A stretch of DNA of 49,702 bases from a virus: the IMG/VR virus record IMGVR_UViG_3300033150_000531, positions 1-49,702 of that record. One strand, 5' to 3'. Below the pieces are notes generated by a model, which was not told where the DNA came from, ran no database searches, and was given only the letters and a program-made list of their open reading frames with translations. Shown piece by piece: positions 38,952-49,702 of this stretch (positions are counted from its first letter, which is position 1; every line of letters starts with the position of its first letter). A program made the position numbers and the translations under genes.

Positions 38952-39225
38952 GGGAGGCCGGAACGAAGGGAGAGTAGGAGGCATTTCCTCTTCTTCGGAT
39001 GGGGCAAAAGAAATCCGTCTGAAATAAACAGCTAATAGAAATTTCCGAAAAGCTCGGACTTAAATTGAATTAAAGATTAGATTTGAATTGGATCGGAAGC
39101 AAAGGTCCTTGATCTGAATTGATGAGAGTCTAGTAAACCGCCGATTCCGCCGTGTGGTATGCTTCCGGCGGATTCAGCGGACCGGCCGCTGAATAAAGTG
39201 AATTAGGAGAAGGAGGAAAAATTAT
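38952..39225 (+). promoter_or_regulatory. Boundary between spike operon and accessory cassette
   Basis: AT-rich gap of 274 bases. It holds the reverse copy of the 19-base repeat (38954-38972), one AATAGAAATTTCCG box (39034-39047), several GAATTG-centred near repeats (39064-39120), an inverted repeat CCGCC/GGCGG around a possible -10 TATGCT (39158-39163), and a perfect hairpin ATTCAGCGG-N5-CCGCTGAAT (39172-39194). The same order of elements is met before two later genes of the cassette. No gene is seen. Confidence 0.5.
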
Positions 39226-39495
39226 GTGAACGAGAAGTGGATTAAAGCAAAAACAAATCAAGAAGTTATCGAGGCTTGGCTTCAAGGTTATCAAAGCCAA
39301 ACCGGAAACTTGGCATCTGACGGACGAATGCTTCGAAGTTATGGAGTGCCCATTGCAAGGTTGGTGAATGGAATTGTGTTCCTGGCACCGGAAATGAAAC
39401 GTTTCTGGTCCAAGAGCACGAGTCGTCATCTGGGTTTGGTAAAGGCCACCGCCAAGGCCAGAGGAATGATAATTAGGTGGCAGAAAGGAGAATAG
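39226..39495 (+). CDS. Small protein preceding the ubiquitin-like gene
   Basis: 89 aa, GTG start after GGAGAAGGAGG. Sequence of mixed helix and strand (KTNQEVIEAWLQGYQSQTGN, RSYGVPIARLVNGIVFLAPE) with a Lys-rich end. It ends two bases before the start of the modifier gene, so both share one mRNA and the terminator that follows. It resembles small phage/plasmid proteins with the SYG-x-x-IA pattern but I assign no function. It may be a cassette partner or substrate. Confidence 0.55.
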   Translation: MNEKWIKAKTNQEVIEAWLQGYQSQTGNLASDGRMLRSYGVPIARLVNGIVFLAPEMKRFWSKSTSRHLGLVKATAKARGMIIRWQKGE

Positions 39496-39497
39496 CA

Positions 39498-39716
39498 ATG
39501 GAGGAGAAAATCAGGATTCGGGTTCTCAATCGAGAGACGGGGGACTTCGAGGATCTCTTGATTCCCCAAGGCTCAACCATCCAGAGTGCAAGGGTGTCCA
39601 TCGGAGTGCCGATGGATGCAAGGGTCCAAGTCAACTACGAACCGGTTGACTCGGACTATGAGTTGAAAGAAGGAGACGTGATCACCTGGTCTCACAAGAA
39701 GATCGTGGGCGGGTGA
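39498..39716 (+). CDS. Ubiquitin-like / ThiS-MoaD-like beta-grasp modifier ending in Gly-Gly
   Basis: 72 aa. Strand 1 KIRIRVLNRETG, strand 2 FEDLLIPQG, a short helix region (TIQSARVSIG), strands RVQVNYEPV and VITWSHKKIVGG give the beta-grasp order, with VNYEPV...LKEGD recalling ThiS/MoaD. The protein stops immediately after Gly-Gly, so no processing is needed before adenylation by an E1. ATG 39498 follows AAAGGAG; a start at 39477 overlaps the gene before. It is followed by E2-like, JAB and E1-like genes, so conjugation to targets is the best reading; sulphur transfer is the alternative. Confidence 0.72.
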   Translation: MEEKIRIRVLNRETGDFEDLLIPQGSTIQSARVSIGVPMDARVQVNYEPVDSDYELKEGDVITWSHKKIVGG

Positions 39717-39735
39717 TCCTGTCCTCAAGAATAGG

Positions 39736-39772
39736 AGCCCAGGGCCTCCTAGTGGGGTCCTGGGCTTTTTTT
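39736..39772 (+). terminator. Terminator between modifier and enzyme genes
   Basis: AGCCCAGG and CCTGGGCT form an 8-bp stem followed by seven T. It ends 15 bases before the E2-like start codon. Only a fraction of transcripts would continue, making the modifier more abundant than its enzymes. Confidence 0.85.
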
Positions 39773-39787
39773 GAGGGAGGTGTGGAG

Positions 39788-41212
39788 ATGATTCGAGTGA
39801 GGGAATTTAAGGCTCATGAGCTCGATCCCTGGAAACCTAGAGACATCCGCTTGTTGTACAAGTGGTGGTCTCGGGTTCAAGAGAAACTAGACCGAGCCGT
39901 CTATGACCTAATTGGGGCCTTGAAACGCCAATGGGATGCACACTTGGAGCGTCTCTTGGCGAACTTGGGGGTGACACGAAGGACGGTTTCGCAGGTGATA
40001 TTCCATAGAACCTGGTATCGCTTGTGCCACGGTCATCGGCTAGGCCAGATGAGCTATACCCACCAGGCCACTTGGGGCCGAGTGTGGGATCATCTGGTCG
40101 CCATGAAGGATTTGATGGGTGTCGTGGAAGAAGTTTCCGCGATGGGGTTGAGAATGCCCTCGTTCCAGACTGTCCTAGAAGACGTGAGGATTGCCCACAA
40201 GGGCGGTCGAAGGTTCTTGTGGGTCCAGCATCCGAGAGAGAATCGGGATGCAACATTGGGCTTCCGAGTTGAAGCTCGGATTGAGAACGATGAGAGCTTG
40301 ATATCAGATCCGCCCTACGGAGTGTTCATGATACTCTTGGATATCTCGGATGTCGTACCCTCGTGGGAGCGGAATCTGAGAGCTTGGGAAGAGACTTTCT
40401 GGTACGAGGCTGCCAAAGAGTTGAAGGTGATTCCGGAGAAGCACATCCTGGACCCGATCCATTGGCCGAGTGGATTGGCTTGGATCTGCTTGGATGGTTG
40501 GCATCCGTGCTGGGGGGAGGCTCACGATCAAGTGGTTGCCTGCTTGAAACAAGGGCGTCTAGGTCTCTTGCAGGCAATCGTGGAGACGTGGCTCGGGACG
40601 CCTTCGACAAGTGGATACCTGGCTTGGAATGAATGGTACTCAAGTATCCTAGGCGAGCCGATCACGAGGACCTGTGATGTGTGCGGATATGAGTGCCCAG
40701 AAGGAGAGCTCATAGTGTGCCGAGAATGTAGAGCACATGCTTGTCCTGGGTGTGTAGTTGACGATGTGTGCGTCAATTGTTGTTGGGTCTGTGATGGTTG
40801 CGAAGAACGATACCCAATATACCAGGACTACTATATGTGCCCTGAGTGCGAGCGAATATATTGCGAAGATTGTTGGGATGCTATGACCGGCTCATATTGC
40901 AGGAGTTGTCAGCATGAGGGGTGCGATCAGTGTGATATGGGATTGGAGCAATGCGAGTTGTGTGGAAAGATGCAGTGCAACCACTGCAAAACGGAGCTTT
41001 GGCCACAGTGTCCCGCTTGCGGTAAGACGATTTGTGGGGAGTGTACGGAGGCGCTCATTAAAGAAGGGGAGAAGAAAGGAGTACCTCTTGTAACGGACAA
41101 GAACACGTTCTGCTCGATAGTGTGCTATCGAGCCTTGAATCCATATGAGGATGAAAAAAAGGTCGAGAAGGACCAAAGTCAGGAAGAAAAGGAGGTGCAA
41201 AATGCGGTGTGA
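39788..41212 (+). CDS. E2-like conjugating domain fused to RING/RBR-like zinc region
   Basis: 474 aa. After a helical N-terminal part (1-135), residues 135-290 resemble a UBC fold; HWPSGLAWICLDGWHP (225-240) parallels the E2 active-site stretch in which an His is followed about nine residues later by the catalytic Cys in ICL, here C234. Residues 296-446 carry about 30 Cys in CxxC pairs (CDVCG, CRECRAHACPGC, CPECERIYCEDC, CELCGKMQCNHC, CPACGKTICGEC), consistent with several RING/IBR-type zinc modules. One chain could thus act as E2 and E3. ATG 39788 has GGGAGG upstream. It overlaps the JAB gene by 11 bases. Confidence 0.65.
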   Translation: MIRVREFKAHELDPWKPRDIRLLYKWWSRVQEKLDRAVYDLIGALKRQWDAHLERLLANLGVTRRTVSQVIFHRTWYRLCHGHRLGQMSYTHQATWGRVWDHLVAMKDLMGVVEEVSAMGLRMPSFQTVLEDVRIAHKGGRRFLWVQHPRENRDATLGFRVEARIENDESLISDPPYGVFMILLDISDVVPSWERNLRAWEETFWYEAAKELKVIPEKHILDPIHWPSGLAWICLDGWHPCWGEAHDQVVACLKQGRLGLLQAIVETWLGTPSTSGYLAWNEWYSSILGEPITRTCDVCGYECPEGELIVCRECRAHACPGCVVDDVCVNCCWVCDGCEERYPIYQDYYMCPECERIYCEDCWDAMTGSYCRSCQHEGCDQCDMGLEQCELCGKMQCNHCKTELWPQCPACGKTICGECTEALIKEGEKKGVPLVTDKNTFCSIVCYRALNPYEDEKKVEKDQSQEEKEVQNAV

Positions 41213-42434
41213 GAAATGTGGTGTTGAAAGCCAACAAGCTTGTCACAGATGCGGTAGGTTCATTTGTGACGAGTGTCTAGAGAAGGGAAAAGCAAGCTTC
41301 TGTGTCATTTGCGGCACAATGCGATGTGAAGAGTGCCGCAAGATCGACCCTGGATACGTTGGAGAGGGAGATGATGGCGAGTGGACGGATTGGCTTTGTT
41401 GTGAGCGTTGCCGATCCGAATGGCAAGAGTCTTGGGGGGAATATGGAACAACGTACTCCCTGAGCGAGACGGATAACGAGGGCAAGGAGACGGAAGGAGA
41501 GGAAAAGGCTGAACCAGAAGGGGTTGTTTATGAGCCTCGGAAGCTCCAGATCAGTGTCTATGCCTGGCAGAAGTTGCTTTGGTTCGCCAGACAGACGGGT
41601 AAGGAGCTCTCGGCTTGGGGCTTGACGGAAGACCCAAAACGGCCGTGGCTCTTGACAGATATTGTGTTTCCTAAACAGAAGGGAACCGCAACGTCCACAG
41701 AGATCACGGAACATGGGGCCGAAGAAACTCAGATTAAGCTCCTGAAGCGAGGGCTCAAGGTTTGGCAATTCGATAGAATCTGGATCCATACTCACCCAAA
41801 TATGGATCCTAGTCCGTCGGCGACGGATTGGAGAACATTCGGGGAAGAGTATGGACACCAGAGCTACTCGATCATGGTGATCCTTGGAGAAGGAAATCGG
41901 CTCTCGGTCCACTTGAGAGTCAAGAGCCGCATCGGGAAGAATTATGTGGCTCTTGTGATTCCGTTGGATTGGGAGTTGTCTTGGGACGCGGACGTACCCC
42001 AAGATTGGCGGGATGAATGGGCCAGGATTCAAGAAACCTTGGATGAAGATGATAACCGAGCCTTGGGGATGTACGTTGGGATCGGTGGTTACCAGAGCCA
42101 CTATGCGGATGCAAGAGAAAGAATGTTGGAGCAAGCCGAGAGCATGACGTCAAGTCCAAGACCCCAAGAAGAACGAGAGACCGCATATGCGGCTTATGGG
42201 GCTTATGAAGCTAAAGATGAAGATGAAGATTCCATCGTGGAGAAGAGAAAGAAATGGTGGATGTCAAGATTGGTAGCTTCGGCTGGCTTAACGCCGGAAG
42301 GAATGAAGATGAGGGAAGAAAGGAGGGCAGACTCGGACCCTTTTGGAAAACAGAAGGGAACAGGGGGAAACGGCTGGTTGGGAAATCCGAAACGAAAGAA
42401 GCGAAAGCGGAAGAAACGCCGAAAGCGGCGATAA
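41202..42434 (+). CDS. JAB/JAMM metalloprotease with N-terminal zinc fingers (deconjugase-like)
   Basis: 410 aa. The N-terminus has CxxC pairs (C3/C6, C14/C17, C22/C25, C34/C37, C42/C45, C67/C70) like the zinc region of the neighbour. The catalytic domain has E135 in GKELSAWGL and the JAMM motif HTHPNMDPSPSATD with H196, H198, S206 and D209, complete for Zn2+ and catalysis. A low-complexity tail (from about 305) ends in a Lys/Arg run. JAB enzymes release ubiquitin-like proteins; as the modifier has bare Gly-Gly, removal from targets is the likely role. ATG 41202 follows AAAGGAGGTGC. Confidence 0.8.
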   Translation: MRCEKCGVESQQACHRCGRFICDECLEKGKASFCVICGTMRCEECRKIDPGYVGEGDDGEWTDWLCCERCRSEWQESWGEYGTTYSLSETDNEGKETEGEEKAEPEGVVYEPRKLQISVYAWQKLLWFARQTGKELSAWGLTEDPKRPWLLTDIVFPKQKGTATSTEITEHGAEETQIKLLKRGLKVWQFDRIWIHTHPNMDPSPSATDWRTFGEEYGHQSYSIMVILGEGNRLSVHLRVKSRIGKNYVALVIPLDWELSWDADVPQDWRDEWARIQETLDEDDNRALGMYVGIGGYQSHYADARERMLEQAESMTSSPRPQEERETAYAAYGAYEAKDEDEDSIVEKRKKWWMSRLVASAGLTPEGMKMREERRADSDPFGKQKGTGGNGWLGNPKRKKRKRKKRRKRR

Positions 42435-42470
42435 ATTGGTGGAGAATCTGAGAAAAAAGGAGGTTGAGTC

Positions 42471-43190
42471 ATGGATATTCAGGAACGAGGAACACGGTAT
42501 GCGGACTTGCTTCCGCTAAAGAATGTGGAGCAGTTGCATGTAGGGGTAATCGGGGTCGGGGGCCTTGGGTATCCAATCGTGAGAGCCTTGGCATCTATTG
42601 GGGTTGGACATATGGAGTTGTTCGATCCGGATCGGGTTGAGGTCGTGAACCTAGGGACCCAAGGATGGTGCCAGGATCACGTGGGCCTCTGGAAAGTAGA
42701 GGCGGCCGCACAAGAGGCTCAACGATTGAACAAGAGCGTCTCTATCGGTCAACATCGGGAGACATTCGAGGAAAACATGATTGTGCCTTGGGATTTGACG
42801 TTTGTGTGCGTCGATTCCATGAAGGCGCGAAAAGATGTGGTGACGGCGTTCTCTCGGAAACGATATGACTATCCAAGAACGTTGGTTGAAGGTCGGATGG
42901 GGGCAGAGGCTTTTGAGTTCCATATACTCCAGACGTTGAATGATGTAGAGCGTTGGCGTCGGGAGTATTGGTTTCCGGATTCAGAGGCGGTTCGAGAGCC
43001 TTGTACAAGAAGGGCAACGATGTGGTGCGGAGTCTCGACGGGAGCTTTGATGGCCGGATATGGTCTCAAGGCTCACTTTGGAATCCTGAAGATTAAGGAT
43101 TTGGTGGGTTGTTGGATTTCTGGGTTCTGTCGGGCCGTTTGGGAGTCTGATGTAGAGGCTTCCGAGATGGCAGAGGCAATCTCGGAATAA
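42471..43190 (+). CDS. E1-like/ThiF-family adenylating enzyme
   Basis: 239 aa. The ThiF/E1 Rossmann core is clear: GVIGVGGLG (25-33), acidic ELFDPDRVE (49-57) and VCVDS with D115. It would adenylate the Gly-Gly end of the modifier and pass it to a Cys; candidates are C178 (EPCT) and C186. The usual NLxRQ after the acid strand is NLGTQ here, so the conserved Arg is missing, an oddity. There is no second adenylation domain and no ubiquitin-fold domain, as in bacterial E1s. AAAGGAGG gives the start. A terminator follows, closing the unit. Confidence 0.82.
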   Translation: MDIQERGTRYADLLPLKNVEQLHVGVIGVGGLGYPIVRALASIGVGHMELFDPDRVEVVNLGTQGWCQDHVGLWKVEAAAQEAQRLNKSVSIGQHRETFEENMIVPWDLTFVCVDSMKARKDVVTAFSRKRYDYPRTLVEGRMGAEAFEFHILQTLNDVERWRREYWFPDSEAVREPCTRRATMWCGVSTGALMAGYGLKAHFGILKIKDLVGCWISGFCRAVWESDVEASEMAEAISE

Positions 43191-43199
43191 AAGTTTCCG
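43186..43199 (+). repeat. AATARRARTTTCCR box, copy at E1 stop
   Basis: AATAAAAGTTTCCG overlaps the E1 stop codon. Related copies: 39034-39047, 43275-43288, 43773-43786. All four lie at gene borders within or at the edge of the cassette and nowhere else noticed. Confidence 0.45.
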
Positions 43200-43209
43200 G
43201 TGAAGACAA

Positions 43210-43248
43210 GGGCACCGATGTCAAGAGGCGTCGGTGCCCTATTTTTTG
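43210..43248 (+). terminator. Terminator of the E2-JAB-E1 unit
   Basis: GGGCACCGA-N12-TCGGTGCCC (perfect 9 bp) followed by TATTTTTT. It ends the ubiquitin-like pathway mRNA 20 bases after the E1 stop. Confidence 0.88.
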
Positions 43249-43448
43249 TCTAGAGTTGGACAAGAGGAACTGGGAATAGAAGTTTCCATTTAAGGGCTTG
43301 ATTTGAATTGGGATGTAGTAAGGTTTTGGTTGGAATTAGAGAATGAATTGGATTGAGTTTTGACGGCGCCCATCAGCGGAATCCGTTACGCTATCGACGG
43401 CAATCGGTGGTGGACCGATTAGAGAAAAGAGATGAAAGGAGGTGCGAG
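43249..43448 (+). promoter_or_regulatory. Leader region of the 105-aa gene
   Basis: Contains the AATAGAAGTTTCCA box (43275-43288), GAATTG-type repeats (43299-43350), a TTGACG that could be a -35 (about 43364) and a leader hairpin AATCGG-N7-CCGATT (43402-43420). Order matches that before the genes at 39226 and 43924. The -10 is not clear. Confidence 0.45.
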
Positions 43449-43766
43449 ATGGTGCTTGTGAGAGGAATAAGGGCAAGGCGATGGGGAGAGGATGGGTATT
43501 TGATCTCGACACCTTGTGGAAGCTTTTGGGGTGTCGATGTTGGAGGGTTTCGATTGGGAGAGGATGCAGCTTTTGGGGTGGTCGTACTGATCGAATGGAT
43601 CGGGAAACATGAGGAGGAGCACATAAGGCAAGTGATGGAAGGCAAACACGCGACGTTTGTGTTAGCCCTTACGAGAGACGAGGTGGAGGAGTGGTTGCAG
43701 AAGGAGCAGACGGTGCAGAACCGTCGGAATCCTCGGCGTACTGAGGATTTGGAGATTTTGAATTGA
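43449..43766 (+). CDS. Hypothetical cassette protein
   Basis: 105 aa, mostly beta at the N-terminus (GYLISTPCGSFWGVDVGGFRL) and helical, charged at the C-terminus. AAAGGAGGTGCGAG precedes the ATG. It stands in its own unit after the ubiquitin-like genes with the same style of leader, so it may act in the same process, but no family is recognised. Confidence 0.55.
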   Translation: MVLVRGIRARRWGEDGYLISTPCGSFWGVDVGGFRLGEDAAFGVVVLIEWIGKHEEEHIRQVMEGKHATFVLALTRDEVEEWLQKEQTVQNRRNPRRTEDLEILN

Positions 43767-43772
43767 GGGGCT

Positions 43773-43786
43773 AATAGGAGTTTCCG
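43773..43786 (+). repeat. AATARRARTTTCCR box upstream of the hairpin gene
   Basis: AATAGGAGTTTCCG, eight bases after the stop of the 105-aa gene and about 60 bases before the promoter of the hairpin gene. Confidence 0.45.
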
Positions 43787-43833
43787 CCTAGAGATTTGGA
43801 TCATAGGGTGGGTGATGCCTTGAATGCCCGCCC

Positions 43834-43862
43834 TTGACAAGCTTTCGCCCGTCGTGTATGGT
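43834..43862 (+). promoter_or_regulatory. Sigma70-type promoter of the hairpin gene
   Basis: -35 TTGACA (consensus), spacer 17, -10 TATGGT, predicted start about 43869. A leader hairpin TTGGTCGG-N7-CCGATCAA (43872-43894, one G-T pair) begins at the mRNA 5' end. Confidence 0.75.
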
Positions 43863-43923
43863 GTTCGGCGGTTGGTCGGTGCGTTGCCGATCAAAGGGTT
43901 TTCTTACAAAAGGGGGTTTGATT

Positions 43924-44403
43924 ATGGCGAAGGGACAAGCACAAGCAACGGTTCCGCAGGACGTTGAGGAAATCTTGGGCCAGGGGTTTGAAACCCTGGC
44001 CGAGAAGGTGGCGTCGATGGTAGATCGTGAATATCTACCATCGGCATTGGTTTTGATTCGGCTTGCATGGTTGCAAGCCGAGGCGTGCAAGGCCAAAGAA
44101 TCAAAGTTCCTGTGGAAGGCGTTGTGGCCTTCCGATTTCGCAACCCTGGCCAACTATTGGCCAGGGGGTTGCGAAAACTGGGAAATGTTCCATGAGAATG
44201 TGACAAGCGTTCTCATGGAACAAGGGATCATATCGTTTTCGCCTGGAAGGAAAGGCGAAAACGATCGGAAACCTAAGCCACCACGTGTTCGGTTAGGGCA
44301 AGCGTCCTCCACCTTCCATGGCCAGGATGATCTAGATAACATCCTGGCCAAGACCTTAAAAACCTTGGCCAGAAAACAGAAGAAAAAGAAAACGAACCGT
44401 TAA
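43924..44403 (+). CDS. Hypothetical helical protein encoded by a chain of DNA hairpins
   Basis: 159 aa, helical (DVEEILGQGFETLAEKVASM, LVLIRLAWLQAEACKAKESK), no TM, with a Lys/Arg-rich C-terminus. AAAGGGGG precedes the ATG after an intervening spacer. No family recognised. What is remarkable is the DNA: from 43978 to 44371 nearly every segment belongs to an inverted repeat, most of them perfect, while the frame stays open. The unit has its own promoter and terminator. It may be a true protein gene under extreme RNA-structure selection, or mainly a structured RNA that is also translated. Confidence 0.6.
   Translation: MAKGQAQATVPQDVEEILGQGFETLAEKVASMVDREYLPSALVLIRLAWLQAEACKAKESKFLWKALWPSDFATLANYWPGGCENWEMFHENVTSVLMEQGIISFSPGRKGENDRKPKPPRVRLGQASSTFHGQDDLDNILAKTLKTLARKQKKKKTNR
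43978..44371 (+). repeat. Array of nine successive inverted repeats within one gene
   Basis: Stems in order: 43978-44001 GGCCAGGG; 44016-44042 GATGGTAGAT; 44059-44080 CGGCTTGCA; 44114-44133 GGAAGGC; 44136-44176 an 18-bp stem with a two-base bulge starting TTTCGCAACCC; 44187-44221 GTTCCATGAGAA; 44232-44265 ATCGTTTTCGCCT; 44319-44350 TGGCCAGGATG; 44345-44371 TGGCCAAG, which shares an arm with the one before and so is an alternative fold. Loops are 3-11 bases. Arms at 43978, 44136, 44319 and 44345 share GGCCA(G), so cross-pairing is also possible. Confidence 0.9.
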
Positions 44404-44409
44404 ACGCAA

Positions 44410-44445
44410 GGGCGGATGGTCTCCGGATCATCCGCCCTTTTTTTT
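44410..44445 (+). terminator. Terminator of the hairpin gene
   Basis: GGGCGGATG-N10-CATCCGCCC (perfect 9 bp) followed by eight T, seven bases after the stop codon. Confidence 0.92.
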
Positions 44446-44889
44446 GTGCCCATATACTCTCCAAATAGTTCGCCATGCCTCTAGCATCTTCCAGCCGCAT
44501 ATGGTTTGCTTTTCCGTTGTTCGCGGTCCGACATGCTGGCCGCCGAACGCGGTCGGCCCCCGTTGCTCATGGCCATTTTGGGGGAAACACCCCATTCACA
44601 CCAGTTCCCCCCGCCCCTTATCCTCCAATTGCCTCCACCCCTCCCCACCCGAAGAGGCCCGAAGAATGCCAACCGAGCCCGTTGGTCATCTTGGCCCCCT
44701 TCGGGAAAACTGGCCCCCTTCGATCCCCAACCATTTGCTTTTTCAAACATCCCCGCTACAATGAGAGCATCCACCCCACCCTACGTCCACCCCCCCTTAT
44801 CCGGCCCCCGAGCCCGAACTACGGCCAAACCGGCCAGAACGACCAAATCGGACTCGAAGTTGGTTCCCCCGAACGGAGTCACCGGAACC
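44446..44889 (+). promoter_or_regulatory. C-rich control region before the replication operon
   Basis: About 440 bases without a convincing gene. The plus strand is unusually C-rich (44560-44720) and has a direct repeat GGCCCCCTTCG (about 44692-44722). A promoter is likely at 44735-44762: TTGCTT, spacer 16, TACAAT, with a start near 44769. The open frame that runs through it is Pro-rich and low-complexity and overlaps the promoter, so I do not count it as coding. Confidence 0.5.
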
Positions 44890-45417
44890 ATGAGTACCAA
44901 TATACCTACACCACCCCAACCTTGGACACCTCTCGAACTCCCAAACGACAACTCGGGTCCCTTACTTGCCGTGGACCTCGAATCCTTCCTAGAGGAGCCT
45001 CTTGCTCGTGGTGCATCCAATGATGCCTGTGCTTCCTATCTTCTCCAACTTCTCCAGAGTACCGCGAAACTTTCCCCACCCAAACGCCCTCTCCTCTTCC
45101 TGTACTACCTGCACGCAGACACCCTAGAGGGTTATCACGCTCTCACGGACTTCCTGGAACGACACCGGATCCCTTTCGAGCCGCCGGACACTCGTTGGAC
45201 CGACTATCCGGACCACTACTACAGGGTCCGTTGTTTTATTCCACCGGGAGCCATCATCCTTACGTCCCGAACCCCCTCGGGCCAACTCCTACGCCATCTT
45301 CAGATCCAGCTACCTACGCCCCCGGCCACACTCCTGGAGGACATTCTGAACTCTTCGAGCTTCCCAGACGGGCCAGATGAGACAGCCCAAAACAACAAGG
45401 ACGACACTGACACCTGA
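44890..45417 (+). CDS. Hypothetical protein, first gene of the replication/packaging operon
   Basis: 175 aa from ATG 44890, which is downstream of the predicted promoter; longer in-frame starts exist at 44506 and 44761 but lie upstream of or within it. After a Pro/Thr-rich start, residues 25-150 look globular (LLAVDLESFLEEPLARGAS, RPLLFLYYLHADTLEGYHAL), and the tail is Asp/Ser-rich. No family recognised. It precedes the ATPase and may act in replication or its control. Confidence 0.5.
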   Translation: MSTNIPTPPQPWTPLELPNDNSGPLLAVDLESFLEEPLARGASNDACASYLLQLLQSTAKLSPPKRPLLFLYYLHADTLEGYHALTDFLERHRIPFEPPDTRWTDYPDHYYRVRCFIPPGAIILTSRTPSGQLLRHLQIQLPTPPATLLEDILNSSSFPDGPDETAQNNKDDTDT

Positions 45418-45455
45418 GCCAGCGGAGAACAGAAAGCACAGGGAAACTAACACCC

Positions 45456-46586
45456 ATGACAGCTAATGCTCCTTACACTCACGAGCGGATGGTTCAATCT
45501 CCTGAGGTGGGGGTTCGTAGGGATACTTCTTTCGACGATCCAACCCCGATAACCCCGATAACCCCGACCCCAATTCCGAACAATCCCGACCTTCTTCGGC
45601 AGGATCTTAACCTCTCCTTCGAGGTTCCGTCCACGTGGCTTCCTCGCAAGTGGTCCGAGGCAGGTCCCCAAGAAAACCTGGACTGGTTCTGGGAAGGCTA
45701 CCTGGGCCGGGGCACCATCACCATGCTCTCCGGCTACCCCAAGTGCGGCAAAACAACCCTTCTCGTCCACGTACTCCGCCTCATGAGCCATCCGGACGGG
45801 GGGTCCCTCGGTACTCCCATCGCACCGGCCAAGGTTCTCATCGTATCCGAGGAAGCCGGGCTCCTATGGTCCCGACGAGCCGATGAGCACAACATCGACG
45901 GCTGGGTTCTCCCTCATCCCTTCCCCCAACGCCCAACACTCCCGGTCTGGTTGGCCTTCACGGAATATTTAGAGCACCTCATGGACCACTACGACTTCGA
46001 GGTTCTGGTCCTGGACACGTTCGCAAGCCTGGCCCCCATCCTCGACGAGAACAACTCCGTCGAGATGTTGAACGCCCTCAACCCACTCCGTAGGTTTCGG
46101 AACGCAGCCGTCCTGCTCGTCCACCATCTCCGGAAGTCCGATGCTCACTCCGGCATGGGGGGTCGGGGCTCCAACGCTCTTCCGGGCTTCGTGGACATCA
46201 TCCTGGAGCTTCGGGCCTACGATAACCTGCACCGCGAAGACCGACGCCGTATCCTAACCGCCTACAGCCGCTTCCCCGAAACCCCACCCGAACTCATCCT
46301 GGAACTTTCGGATGACGGCCTACGTTATGATGTCTTCGAGGGACCCCGTGACAGCTTCCAGGACCGCCGAATCCGAGCCCTCGTGGCCCTCATTCAGGCC
46401 GCCCGAGAGCCCCTCACGAAAGACGACATCCTGACTCGGTGGCCCAAGGGACCTATTCCAAAGCCCAGTCCTGCCACACTCCGTCGTGATCTCCAGGACG
46501 CCACCCAACGAGGTCTCATCCAGGTCCAGGGCACCGGTGTCCGCAACGATCCCTTCCTCTTCTCCCCGGCCCCACCCTCATCCTGA
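45456..46586 (+). CDS. RepA-like RecA-fold replication ATPase (AAA_25 type)
   Basis: 376 aa. Walker A GYPKCGKTT (93-101), Walker B VLVLDT (183-188), LLVHHLRKSD (221-229) and GGRGSNALPGFVDIILEL (235-252) are the marks of AAA_25/RepA-like hexameric helicases used by plasmids and phages. The first 50 residues are Pro/Thr/Asn-rich; the last 90 (RRIRALVALIQAAREPLTKD onward) look like a winged helix. Likely helicase or loader for phage replication. The large gene-free region after it has repeats fitting an origin. Confidence 0.75.
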   Translation: MTANAPYTHERMVQSPEVGVRRDTSFDDPTPITPITPTPIPNNPDLLRQDLNLSFEVPSTWLPRKWSEAGPQENLDWFWEGYLGRGTITMLSGYPKCGKTTLLVHVLRLMSHPDGGSLGTPIAPAKVLIVSEEAGLLWSRRADEHNIDGWVLPHPFPQRPTLPVWLAFTEYLEHLMDHYDFEVLVLDTFASLAPILDENNSVEMLNALNPLRRFRNAAVLLVHHLRKSDAHSGMGGRGSNALPGFVDIILELRAYDNLHREDRRRILTAYSRFPETPPELILELSDDGLRYDVFEGPRDSFQDRRIRALVALIQAAREPLTKDDILTRWPKGPIPKPSPATLRRDLQDATQRGLIQVQGTGVRNDPFLFSPAPPSS

Positions 46587-46942
46587 CCTGGTTCCGAACC
46601 AGTCCTGAACCGGTCCCGAACCACCCCCGGAACCAGTTTGCCCCCACTCCGTTTCGTTTCATGTCACTTATAAGAGAGAGGATGAATGAAATAAAACGGC
46701 CCTCACAAAAGGCCAGTCCCACTGAAAATGGGGGGCTTCCCTACGAACCCCCACCCTCCTGGAGAACCAGCACTTGTGAGCCTAGGTAATTTAGGTAATC
46801 TGGGACCCTATAAAAATAGCTCGCTGACATGAAAAATTAAATTATTGTTTTATTTCACATGATCCGAAACCAGATGACACCAATAATTAGAATACTAAGG
46901 GGTAATGCTTGTGAAATCGTGAAATGTCTCCTACAGCCCATT

Positions 46943-46971
46943 TGACGGCCCTTTTCCCCCTCCTTATACAT
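46943..46971 (+). promoter_or_regulatory. Sigma70-type promoter of the packaging operon
   Basis: -35 TTGACG, spacer 17, -10 TATACA, predicted start about 46978. It would drive the genes from 47061 into terminase and the late operon. Confidence 0.72.
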
Positions 46972-46981
46972 ATAGAGAGCG

Positions 46982-47014
46982 AGCGTGACATGCTTTCGTT
47001 TCATGTCACGCTCT
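46982..47014. promoter_or_regulatory. Operator-like palindrome at the transcription start
   Basis: GAGCGTGACATG-N9-CATGTCACGCTC, perfect 12-bp arms, starting a few bases after the predicted start site. Either a repressor operator or a 5' hairpin in the mRNA. One arm contains the direct repeat of the region. Confidence 0.7.
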
Positions 47015-47060
47015 CTTATATAAGTGACGTGAATCAAAACAACACCGGACTTTCTTCAGC

Positions 47061-47906
47061 ATGTCTGAATCCACCCCTAAGCCCGACATCAACCCTTTTC
47101 CTCGTCGGGGACCCAAACCTAAGGCCAACCCCAAGTGCATCCGTCCTGTCCGCCTCTATCCCAAGGTAAAGCATGACCCCGTGAACGGGTCCGCCATCCT
47201 CCGCGACCTCCAACGAAAACAGCAACAGCAACGCCAGAAGCAATGGCAACGTCGCCAGCAACAACAACAATCCACCCTCAAGCCTCGAAAACTACCCTAC
47301 GATCTGCCCCCATCTACCCCAATTCGTGTTGATATGGAGATTCCGGACTTTACGAATCCGCCTAAGTCCCCTAAACTAACAGGAGACGGAGAAGCATCAG
47401 AATTCGTACCCGTGGGCTGGGCGGTCCGGCTCACGCGATTGGATCTATTTTCCAAGGCTCTCGGAACATCCGTAGAAGTTGCCCGCAAGCTCCTGGAGGT
47501 GCTCGATGTACCCGTACTGGACCTCGGCGATAACCGGATCTACTTCAATCTGCCGGTCCTCGAATTGGCTCTCTGGAGCCTTCTTCGACAGGGTGCTCCA
47601 GGTTGGACCTATTACCCGGAATCTCCAAAGATCCCCGACGACGTACATTTTCCTGCATACGAGGTCCAGAAGCCCGATCCTCTCGTCCGCGATGACGAGA
47701 AACGCCTCCTTTCGACGCTCCAGGAACAGCTATCGGTCCCCCGCGAGATGCAGGCTGTAGCAACCTACTACTATGACTTCAGCAAACGCCGTATGCTCCG
47801 AAAGCTCCGCCAAATCACGGGAGCTCTCCGTGCCTTCCGAAAACGCCGAGCTAACACCCATCGAGCCCTCCGAACCGTCCCAGATCCAGAGGCGGACGGC
47901 TGCTGA
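47061..47906 (+). CDS. Hypothetical DNA-packaging-region protein with Gln-rich segment
   Basis: 281 aa. Residues 50-72 are a Gln/Arg run (QRKQQQQRQKQWQRRQQQQQ), then a domain from about 115 with helix-turn-helix look (LDLFSKALGTSVEVARKLLE followed by VPVLDLGDNRIYFNLPVLEL). The C-terminal 40 residues are very basic. A DNA-binding, possibly packaging-site or regulatory, role is likely from composition and position. No family recognised. Confidence 0.55.
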   Translation: MSESTPKPDINPFPRRGPKPKANPKCIRPVRLYPKVKHDPVNGSAILRDLQRKQQQQRQKQWQRRQQQQQSTLKPRKLPYDLPPSTPIRVDMEIPDFTNPPKSPKLTGDGEASEFVPVGWAVRLTRLDLFSKALGTSVEVARKLLEVLDVPVLDLGDNRIYFNLPVLELALWSLLRQGAPGWTYYPESPKIPDDVHFPAYEVQKPDPLVRDDEKRLLSTLQEQLSVPREMQAVATYYYDFSKRRMLRKLRQITGALRAFRKRRANTHRALRTVPDPEADGC

Positions 47907-48507
47907 AGAAGAAAACGTCCTCAGCTTCTTCACGGTCCACGGTCTCGGGGCCGCCCTCCGTCTCACGGACTACAGCGTCGCGGAAGAGCTCGAAATCCTC
48001 ACGAGCATCGCAAGGGACGCCCCTGACCCCAAACTCCAAATGCTCGCAATCCAAATGATCCGGAACCACCTCAAGGAAGCCCTCCTCATGAATGGTGGTA
48101 TCCGGCAAATCTCCGGCACTCAATCCTGGCAGATGTCCGATGGCCGCCAAGTGACGGCCCATCTTCAGTCATATCAATTGTCCAAGTCTTCGGCCTCCGA
48201 GACGGAAGTCATGCTCCAGCAGGCCGCCGCTCTCGGTCGCCAACTACAATTGGAGGCTCACCATGACACAGAGTTCGCAGATCCCTCAGAATTCGGAAAC
48301 TCCGGCCCCGAAAACCCCAGACCCGAAAGCCCCGAAACCGGCTCCCAGGCCCAAACCAATCTACCCCCGGAAACCTCTGAGGCCGAGCCCGCAACCCAGT
48401 CCGGAGAAACCCGAGAGTCTGGAGAGTCCGAAGAACCCGGAGGCCCCGACGCCCTCCCAGGCGGAATCTGCTACGTCGCCCCCAGAGCCATCGACGCCCC
48501 CGCCTAA
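47830..48507 (+). CDS. Hypothetical protein, candidate small terminase
   Basis: 225 aa from GTG 47830, which has GGGAG six bases upstream; an ATG at 47773 in the same frame has no ribosome site. It overlaps the gene before by 77 bases. Residues 30-135 are helical (VAEELEILTSIARDAPDPKL, QMLAIQMIRNHLKEALLMNG) in the manner of small DNA-recognition subunits. The last 80 residues are Glu/Pro/Ser-rich and are coded by the same DNA as the start of the next gene in another frame. Small terminase role is inferred only from position. Confidence 0.5.
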   Translation: MPSENAELTPIEPSEPSQIQRRTAAEEENVLSFFTVHGLGAALRLTDYSVAEELEILTSIARDAPDPKLQMLAIQMIRNHLKEALLMNGGIRQISGTQSWQMSDGRQVTAHLQSYQLSKSSASETEVMLQQAAALGRQLQLEAHHDTEFADPSEFGNSGPENPRPESPETGSQAQTNLPPETSEAEPATQSGETRESGESEEPGGPDALPGGICYVAPRAIDAPA

Positions 48508-48862
48508 GCCGACGAAGCCGGAAGCCCCGAAAGCTCCGGACCTTCCGGACGTTTCCGAGTGGATCCCGAGGCTCCAGACGGTTCTCCGGGACCGGCACCG
48601 GGCTAACGCCTACGCGAAGCTCATCTGTACGACCGTCGGGTGCCATCTGGGAGTCCAGACCCGCGTGGTCCAGAACTCCATGATCCACCGCCTCGTCCAG
48701 GAGATCCTCAGTGACGACGAGTTCCTGGGTTCCTTCGTCGCGGGAATCCTGAAGGCCCACCCGGACCTTTCGTCCGTGATCCTGGGCCGCATCGTGTCCG
48801 TGGCTGTCTTCGGGGAAGCCCTCGTCCGCTACTCGGAGATCGTTCGAAAAGGAGCCAACTGA
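48263..48862 (+). CDS. Hypothetical protein directly before terminase, alternative small terminase candidate
   Basis: 199 aa. ATG 48263 has TTGGAGG six bases upstream, so translation inside the previous gene is well supported. Residues 1-85 are a Pro/Lys/Glu linker overlapping the previous frame by 245 bases. Residues 90-199 are a compact helical domain (DVSEWIPRLQTVLRDRHRAN, IHRLVQEILSDDEFLGSFVA). The large terminase starts five bases after its stop. It may be the small terminase or a terminase partner; no diagnostic motif. Confidence 0.5.
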   Translation: MTQSSQIPQNSETPAPKTPDPKAPKPAPRPKPIYPRKPLRPSPQPSPEKPESLESPKNPEAPTPSQAESATSPPEPSTPPPKPTKPEAPKAPDLPDVSEWIPRLQTVLRDRHRANAYAKLICTTVGCHLGVQTRVVQNSMIHRLVQEILSDDEFLGSFVAGILKAHPDLSSVILGRIVSVAVFGEALVRYSEIVRKGAN

Positions 48863-48867
48863 GCCCC

Positions 48868-49702
48868 ATGAGCCACCATTCGCCAATCATGGCACCGTCT
48901 CACGATGAGTCCCGTCCGGTCCGGTTCCGGAAGGAGAACAACCCCTGGTATCCCCTCCCGCCGGACTACGAGGACCTGACGGAAGACGGAAAGCGATTGG
49001 CTCGTCTCAATGCGGTCCGGCTCCAGGAAACCCCGGAGGACCTCGTGCACGCTTGGCGTTTTTTCCGGGAATGCTACCTGAAGCCCCAGGCCGCCCGTTG
49101 GTACAAGTTCTGGAAACCGAGCCCACCCATGCACTACCAGATGGTCTGGGACTTGGGCCGCTATCCCCGGAACGCCTGGGCCGCTCCTCGTGGTTTTTCG
49201 AAGACGACGGTCCTCCGGGAGATCGCCCTCCTCCTGACGCTCACGAGACCTCACTTCTACGTGAGCCTCATCCACGCAACCATCAAAAAATACCGTAAGT
49301 CTATGGACACCCTCAAATGGCAACTGGAGCACAACCCGCTCCTGAGGGCTGACTTCGCGCCCTACTTCGGCGAATCCTTACGGCCCAAGCGAGGCGACCG
49401 ACCTTGGGGTGCCGAGATCATGAGGCTCCCGAACGGCTCTCTCCTGGAGGGTGGGTCCGTCGAGGGTGCCCTCCGTGGCGACCGCCCAGACCTCCTAATC
49501 CTGGACGACGTTGAATACGATGACGACGAGGGCGGCTCCGACCCCACGGTTCTCCTCGCGGACTTCGAGACGCTCCTCTTCAAGACGCTTCTCCCGATGC
49601 TGACAGAGGGGTCGGCCATCTTCTGGATCGGGACCCTCATCAGCCGCAAGTCCTACCTGTACACCGTCACGAAGGGCTCCGATCCACGCTTCCAGTTCTT
49701 CA
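48868..49702 (+). CDS. terL: Large terminase subunit, N-terminal part (continues at base 1)
   Basis: The first 278 codons of the 644-aa packaging ATPase. Walker A-like PRGFSKTT is at residues 107-114, in the deviant form usual for terminases, and Walker B with the catalytic Glu is LLILDDVE at 209-216. The N-terminal 70 residues are a charged, Pro-containing leader. ATG 48868 lies five bases after the gene before, whose end carries an AAAAGGAG ribosome site. The frame runs through the terminal repeat into the left end of the window. Confidence 0.92.
   Translation, partial: MSHHSPIMAPSHDESRPVRFRKENNPWYPLPPDYEDLTEDGKRLARLNAVRLQETPEDLVHAWRFFRECYLKPQAARWYKFWKPSPPMHYQMVWDLGRYPRNAWAAPRGFSKTTVLREIALLLTLTRPHFYVSLIHATIKKYRKSMDTLKWQLEHNPLLRADFAPYFGESLRPKRGDRPWGAEIMRLPNGSLLEGGSVEGALRGDRPDLLILDDVEYDDDEGGSDPTVLLADFETLLFKTLLPMLTEGSAIFWIGTLISRKSYLYTVTKGSDPRFQFF
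49589..49702. repeat. Terminal direct repeat, right copy
   Basis: Identical to bases 1-114. Removing one copy gives a unique circle of 49,588 bases in which the terminase gene is intact. Confidence 0.95.

What the first reader, a model, noticed from the sequence alone, without database searches (positions are those of the whole stretch)
43924..44445. A gene built as a chain of perfect hairpins
Within 394 bases there are nine inverted repeats, including arms of 10 (GATGGTAGAT), 12 (GTTCCATGAGAA), 13 (ATCGTTTTCGCCT), 18 (bulged) and 11 (TGGCCAGGATG) bases, while a 159-codon frame remains open. None of the other genes I read shows this. Chance cannot give such a row. The product may be a structured RNA that doubles as mRNA: a dsRNA-like decoy, a nuclease-resistant message, a scaffold, or a source of processed hairpin RNAs. 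Two 3' hairpins share the arm TGGCCA and so form a switchable pair just before the terminator. It has its own consensus-like promoter and strong terminator.
Basis: seen in the sequence. Interest (0 to 1): 0.88.

Follow-up and report, generated by a model that had tools for sequence, protein, structure and literature searches.

The report
Phage gene made of perfect hairpins
A small protein-coding gene in an unusual uncultured phage is written almost entirely as back-to-back perfect inverted repeats; this cannot be chance, and it looks more like the footprint of a DNA-copying process that makes and repairs hairpins than like a message selected for its RNA shape, though no relative exists yet to prove it.

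Summary
ORF 43924-44403 (159 codons, with Shine-Dalgarno, promoter and terminator) carries ten local perfect inverted repeats with arms of 7-13 bp plus a nested outer stem. The RNA folds at z = -14.4 against dinucleotide shuffles; against synonymous reshuffling of its own codons z is about -9, other gene segments of this phage averaging -1.1. Perfect hairpins with arms of 8 or more number 10 here against 0.05 expected. Nothing in about 0.7 Mb of distant kin, or in T4, lambda, a Vibrio phage and E. coli controls, matches it.

A function-bearing RNA is not established. The repeats look made at DNA level: 7 perfect ten-bp stems and none with a single G-U, whereas RNA phages show 3 against 7. Neighbouring genes carry quasi-palindromes with no G-T over A-C preference. 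Closest precedents: template-switch arm homogenisation and coding palindromes of hairworm mitochondria. Preferred explanation: a fast-evolving accessory protein gene in which replication template switching makes and repairs hairpins. Rivals: a selected structured mRNA, or a replication site inside a gene, which sits at the genome's sharpest GC-skew switch. No homologue was found, so covariation could not be tested.

The parts
43834..43862 (+). sigma-70-like promoter TTGACA-17-TATGGT
   Evidence: 10 of 12 consensus bases; promoter-like matches in the region overall are at shuffle level
43908..43916 (+). Shine-Dalgarno-like AAAAGGGGG run upstream of ATG
   Evidence: read
43924..44403 (+). 159-codon ORF; no family in Pfam, PHROGs, NCBIfam or PADLOC; predicted mostly helical with a strand pair near residues 103-124 (low confidence)
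   Evidence: codon statistics favour this frame
43978..44001 (+). hairpin, 8 bp perfect, extended past a one-G bulge (GGCCAGGG(G)TT)
44015..44043 (+). hairpin, 11 bp perfect, loop 7, codon phase 1
44052..44105 (+). outer stem TTTGATTC/GAATCAAA enclosing the next hairpin
44058..44081 (+). hairpin, 10 bp perfect, loop 4, codon phase 1
44114..44133 (+). hairpin, 7 bp perfect, loop 6
44136..44176 (+). long hairpin: 11 bp + 10 bp perfect, joined by a GG bulge, loop CTA
44186..44222 (+). hairpin, 13 bp perfect, codon phase 2
44232..44265 (+). hairpin, 13 bp perfect, codon phase 3
44319..44350 (+). hairpin, 11 bp perfect (TGGCCAGGATG)
44344..44372 (+). hairpin, 9 bp perfect, shares CTGGCCA with the preceding one
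44408..44439 (+). intrinsic terminator, 14-pair stem then T-run
39143..43187 (+). upstream block with about 12 near-perfect quasi-palindromes (one mismatch in 10 bp), some inside the ORF at 39713, the JAB-like gene and the ThiF gene

Best explanation
It is a translated accessory gene of a tailed phage whose coding DNA has accumulated a chain of perfect short inverted repeats through a DNA-level process. A replicating polymerase pauses at a small imperfect inverted repeat, switches template, and copies one arm from the other, turning quasi-palindromes into perfect ones and repairing later mismatches. The protein, fast-evolving and weakly constrained, tolerates the changes as long as the frame stays open. 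The structured mRNA is then a consequence, not the selected feature. Shown: the repeats, their perfection, the open frame, the codon dependence, a milder form in the neighbouring genes. Inferred: the template-switch mechanism, translation of the ORF, weak protein constraint.
For: All-or-nothing perfection: 7 perfect ten-bp stems, none with one G-U, versus 3 and 7 in four RNA phages (Fisher p about 0.01); G-U in helices of 7 bp or more is 7% versus 15% (p about 0.017). The two imperfect long stems differ only in the length of a G run, as by slippage. All three codon phases are used, 46:43:22 bp, with phase 3 rarest, the order reported for long coding palindromes (PMC6649704). Hairpins are nearly all different in sequence and there are no direct repeats. 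The neighbouring 4 kb holds 12 one-off quasi-palindromes versus 0.4 expected, mismatches G-T:A-C:other 4:3:5, i.e. no RNA-strand preference. The reverse strand is also strongly folded. Kin genomes show a general two-fold excess of perfect hairpins, 466 versus 232. Known precedents: PMC8794818, PMC8604942, PMC6649704.
Against: The density in one 400-nt ORF (200 times expectation) is far above the neighbours, and a general replication process does not explain why only this gene. The chain ends sharply at the gene's 3' end. Counts behind the G-U test are small. Overall G-U in all helices is ordinary (9.2% versus 9.8-11.1%). There are no sequenced relatives to show arm conversion happening.
Confidence: 0.5

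Rival explanations
1. Selected structured transcript: the 0.57-kb RNA from its own promoter to its own terminator has an RNA-level role (stability, translation control, protein binding or dual coding/non-coding RNA), and selection on pairing has shaped the codons.
For: z -14.4; + strand folds better than - strand (z -13.5 versus -10.4); own promoter and terminator; synonymous codons carry the signal; one gene only.
Against: No single-G-U stems where RNA phages have many; no Rfam match; similar but milder quasi-palindromes in neighbouring protein genes; no homologue.
Confidence: 0.27
2. Replication site inside a gene: the ORF holds an origin or terminus of the phage, in the manner of the lambda origin inside gene O, and the inverted repeats act in DNA (protein binding half-site CCTGGCC, or hairpins in single-stranded DNA).
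For: The gene lies at the sharpest GC-skew switch of the genome, +0.36 to -0.29 over 900 nt on each side; about 1 kb upstream of an AAA_25 ATPase gene; CCTGGCC occurs 6 times here of 19 in the genome; in kin G014 the equally sharp switch lies beside the AAA_25 homologue and iteron-like repeats; weak winged-helix resemblances of the product; lambda precedent visible in its record.
Against: Most hairpins share no sequence; the direction of skew fits a terminus or physical genome end better than an origin; skew and hairpins are not linked across kin; G014's switch has one hairpin, not a chain; Foldseek matches are not significant.
Confidence: 0.15
3. Assembly artefact or non-coding palindrome cluster with an accidental ORF.
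For: Metagenomic contig, no second copy known, hairpins in G017 extend outside ORFs.
Against: ORF with ribosome site ends just before a terminator, and the other + frames have 6 and 7 stops; short-loop repeats of different sequence are not a known assembly error pattern (own knowledge).
Confidence: 0.08

Closest known systems
Coding palindromes in hairworm (Nematomorpha) mitochondrial genes (PMC6649704)
   Same: Perfect inverted repeats with short spacing inside open protein genes, nearly no imperfect ones, all codon phases with phase 3 rarest by length, suspected arm conversion.
   Different: Those are longer (mean 43 bp, up to 142-bp arms) and lie in conserved respiratory genes at many loci; here arms are at most 13 bp perfect, packed in one orphan phage gene.
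Template-switch homogenisation of short inverted repeats in genes (PMC8604942, PMC8794818)
   Same: Short arms (7-16 bp), short spacers, perfecting of quasi-palindromes, amino acid changes tolerated.
   Different: Reported mostly as single events per gene; here about ten repeats fill one 400-nt stretch.
Lambda gene O with its internal origin
   Same: Inverted-repeat elements inside a reading frame near replication genes; putative DNA-binding product.
   Different: Lambda has four similar iterons; here repeats are mostly unrelated in sequence, and origin activity is untested.
RNA-phage coding RNA (MS2, PP7, Qbeta, AP205)
   Same: Coding sequence rich in hairpins.
   Different: RNA-phage stems tolerate G-U and mismatches (3 perfect ten-bp stems in 15.6 kb; 13-16% G-U in long helices).

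Membership tests
Coding palindromes (Nematomorpha type) | perfect inverted repeats inside an open coding frame | tested here: met
Coding palindromes (Nematomorpha type) | no excess of imperfect repeats beside the perfect ones | tested here: met
   7 perfect, 2 one-off, 1 two-off versus 1.6 expected for two-off
Coding palindromes (Nematomorpha type) | arms of at least 15 bp | tested here: not met
   longest perfect arm 13 bp
Coding palindromes (Nematomorpha type) | both arms encode conserved residues of a known protein | not testable with these tools
   no homologue found
Known structured RNA family (Rfam 15, including large phage and bacterial RNAs) | covariance-model match at gathering score | tested here: not met
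Structure-selected coding RNA | G-U tolerated in stems as in RNA phages | tested here: not met
   small numbers
Structure-selected coding RNA | compensatory changes in homologues | not testable with these tools
   no homologue found
Palindromic repeat elements inserted in genes (Rickettsia RPE, MITE) | copies of one repeated element | tested here: not met
   hairpins differ in sequence, no direct repeats of 8 or more at short distance
Origin inside an initiator gene (lambda O type) | location at a replication switch point | tested here: inconclusive
   sharpest GC-skew switch at 44.2 kb, but sign fits terminus or genome end, and no link in kin
Origin inside an initiator gene (lambda O type) | iterated near-identical binding sites | tested here: inconclusive
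   CCTGGCC six times, partly forced by hairpin symmetry and by repeated Leu-Ala codons

The most novel reading that the evidence does not exclude
A phage gene under joint selection as a protein and as a chain of perfect hairpins acting in nucleic acid form (a dual-function structured mRNA, or a replication terminus/origin written inside a reading frame), i.e. a new kind of coding/structural element.
Probability: 0.25. Interest if true: 0.85.

Novelty: new variant of a known kind. Interest (0 to 1): 0.6.

Why it matters
It is by far the densest row of perfect hairpins inside a reading frame in all the sequence examined here. If made by template switching, it is a natural record of how replication writes palindromes into genes and how much a protein can bend to them, in a phage where the process could be tested. 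If selected, it would be a protein gene that is also a structured nucleic-acid element.

Tried and rejected
Homologue searches for the 159-aa protein: phages, plasmids, viral and genome contigs with two sets of peptides, kin records: none. The peptide-pattern searches need 8 identical residues, so only close relatives could have been seen. Searches with ThiF, AAA and whole polymerase in viral contigs: none; a polymerase-motif query found 22 distant kin. L002 5-hairpin cluster: largely intergenic, a different region. G017 (L033) hairpin-rich stretch 2.2-5.2 kb with a 142-aa ORF: looked like a second case, but its neighbours are about as structured (z -3.7 to -6.0) and it has no relatives, so it is only a milder parallel. 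Link between GC skew and hairpins: real at this gene, not in kin. AlphaFold single-sequence model is poor (pLDDT 50) and Foldseek gave nothing significant, only a tendency to winged-helix proteins. GGCC-site decoy idea: GGCC is not avoided in the genome. One search timed out; searches stopped with script errors after printing the results used.

Full report
WHAT WAS CHECKED. The ORF 43924-44403 has 159 codons, starts after an AAAAGGGGG stretch, lies about 60 nt behind a TTGACA-17-TATGGT promoter and stops just before a 14-pair terminator. The RNA of 43924-44445 folds at -257.8 kcal/mol, shuffles at -167.8 +/- 6.3, z -14.4. The ORF alone gives z -13.5 and its reverse strand -10.4. Keeping the protein and permuting its own synonymous codons gives about -162 +/- 7.5, z about -9; 41 other segments of this phage's genes average -1.1 (sd 1.8). 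So codon choice, more than the amino acid sequence, carries the structure. Ten perfect hairpins with arms of 8 or more (terminator included) lie in 522 nt against 0.05 expected; the other 49 kb holds 38 against about 15. In about 0.7 Mb of kin sequence, T4, lambda, E. coli and a Vibrio phage, no 400-nt stretch equals it (at most 7, in a GC-rich relative; 2-3 in the controls).

IS IT A PROTEIN GENE. The frame is the best of six by the phage's codon usage, at the level of its other accessory genes; the other + frames have 6 and 7 stops. No family was found in Pfam, PHROGs, NCBIfam or PADLOC. A single-sequence AlphaFold model is poor, mostly helices with a strand pair at 103-106/121-124 and a basic C-terminal helix. 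The insignificant Foldseek matches include several winged-helix proteins. I take 'small DNA-binding winged-helix protein' as a guess only.

SURROUNDINGS. The record is a 49.7-kb virus contig. The large terminase ORF runs off the right end (48715) and continues in frame from base 3 at the left end, both parts matching the same genes in kin, so the contig is a circularly permuted, probably complete genome. Twenty-two distant kin (about 25-38% protein identity; terminase, polymerase and other proteins shared) were found through a polymerase motif. The hairpin gene has no counterpart in them. The gene sits exactly where GC skew flips most sharply, from +0.36 to -0.29, about 1 kb upstream of an AAA_25 ATPase gene. 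The kin genome G014 has an equally sharp flip next to the homologue of that ATPase, with iteron-like repeats but no hairpin chain. Across kin, skew and hairpin density are unrelated.

RNA OR DNA. Natural coding RNA that is selected for structure is available as a control: four RNA phages. In 15.6 kb they hold 3 perfect ten-bp stems and 7 with exactly one G-U; the gene holds 7 and 0 in 0.48 kb (Fisher p about 0.01). G-U makes 13-16% of their helices of 7 bp or more, 7% here (p about 0.017). The numbers are small, and over all helices G-U is not unusual here (9%), so this is a moderate argument. The two imperfect long stems differ only by G-run length. Upstream, 39.1-43.2 kb holds twelve ten-bp inverted repeats with one mismatch (0.4 expected, five shuffles), in the ORF at 39713, the JAB-like gene, the ThiF gene and intergenic DNA, with G-T, A-C and other mismatches 4:3:5. 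RNA selection on the + strand should favour G-T over A-C; it does not. This looks like a pool of quasi-palindromes of which the hairpin gene is the perfected extreme.

COMPARISON. Template switching is known to create perfect stems in one step and to homogenise arms of short inverted repeats in genes (PMC8794818, PMC8604942). Perfect repeats inside coding sequence, 'binary' in perfection and with phase 3 rarest among long ones, are described in hairworm mitochondria, where a conversion process is suspected (PMC6649704). The gene here shares perfection, short loops and phase order (46:43:22 bp), but its arms are shorter and no conserved protein can be shown. I therefore say it works like a coding palindrome chain and do not claim membership.

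VERDICT. Observation confirmed; RNA function not shown; best explanation a DNA-level hairpin-making process in a tolerant accessory gene (0.5), rivals a selected structured mRNA (0.27) and a replication site within a gene (0.15). What remains unexplained is why the process, if it is one, is concentrated in this single ORF.

Noticed in passing
window 41145-42434 and 42471-43190: Adjacent phage genes with a weak JAB-like isopeptidase domain and a clear ThiF/E1-like domain, resembling the E1/JAB parts of CBASS and ubiquitin-like defence operons; kin L002 and L003 carry both near the polymerase.
   Followed up: partly
window 48715-49702 joined to 1-1214: The large terminase gene is split by the contig ends and continues in frame, so the contig is circularly permuted and probably complete although classed linear.
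   Followed up: yes
window 39000-49702: Very strong and opposite GC skews meet at 44.2 kb (cumulative maximum); minimum near 1.6 kb. Suggests terminus or genome end near 44.2 kb and origin near 1-2 kb.
   Followed up: partly
L031 13500-13640 (kin G014): Iteron-like repeats ACTCAC(AA/GT)CCCGAGTAATTAAA with an 11-bp hairpin in an intergenic gap at the sharpest skew switch, near an AAA_25 gene homologue: candidate replication region.
   Followed up: partly
L033 2160-5200 (kin G017): Hairpin-rich stretch (22 perfect hairpins, about 1.8 expected) including a 142-aa orphan ORF with its own TTGACA-TATAGT promoter, also near a skew change.
   Followed up: partly
window 46981-47013: Isolated perfect 12-bp hairpin GAGCGTGACATG in an AT-rich intergenic stretch upstream of the terminase region.
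   Followed up: no
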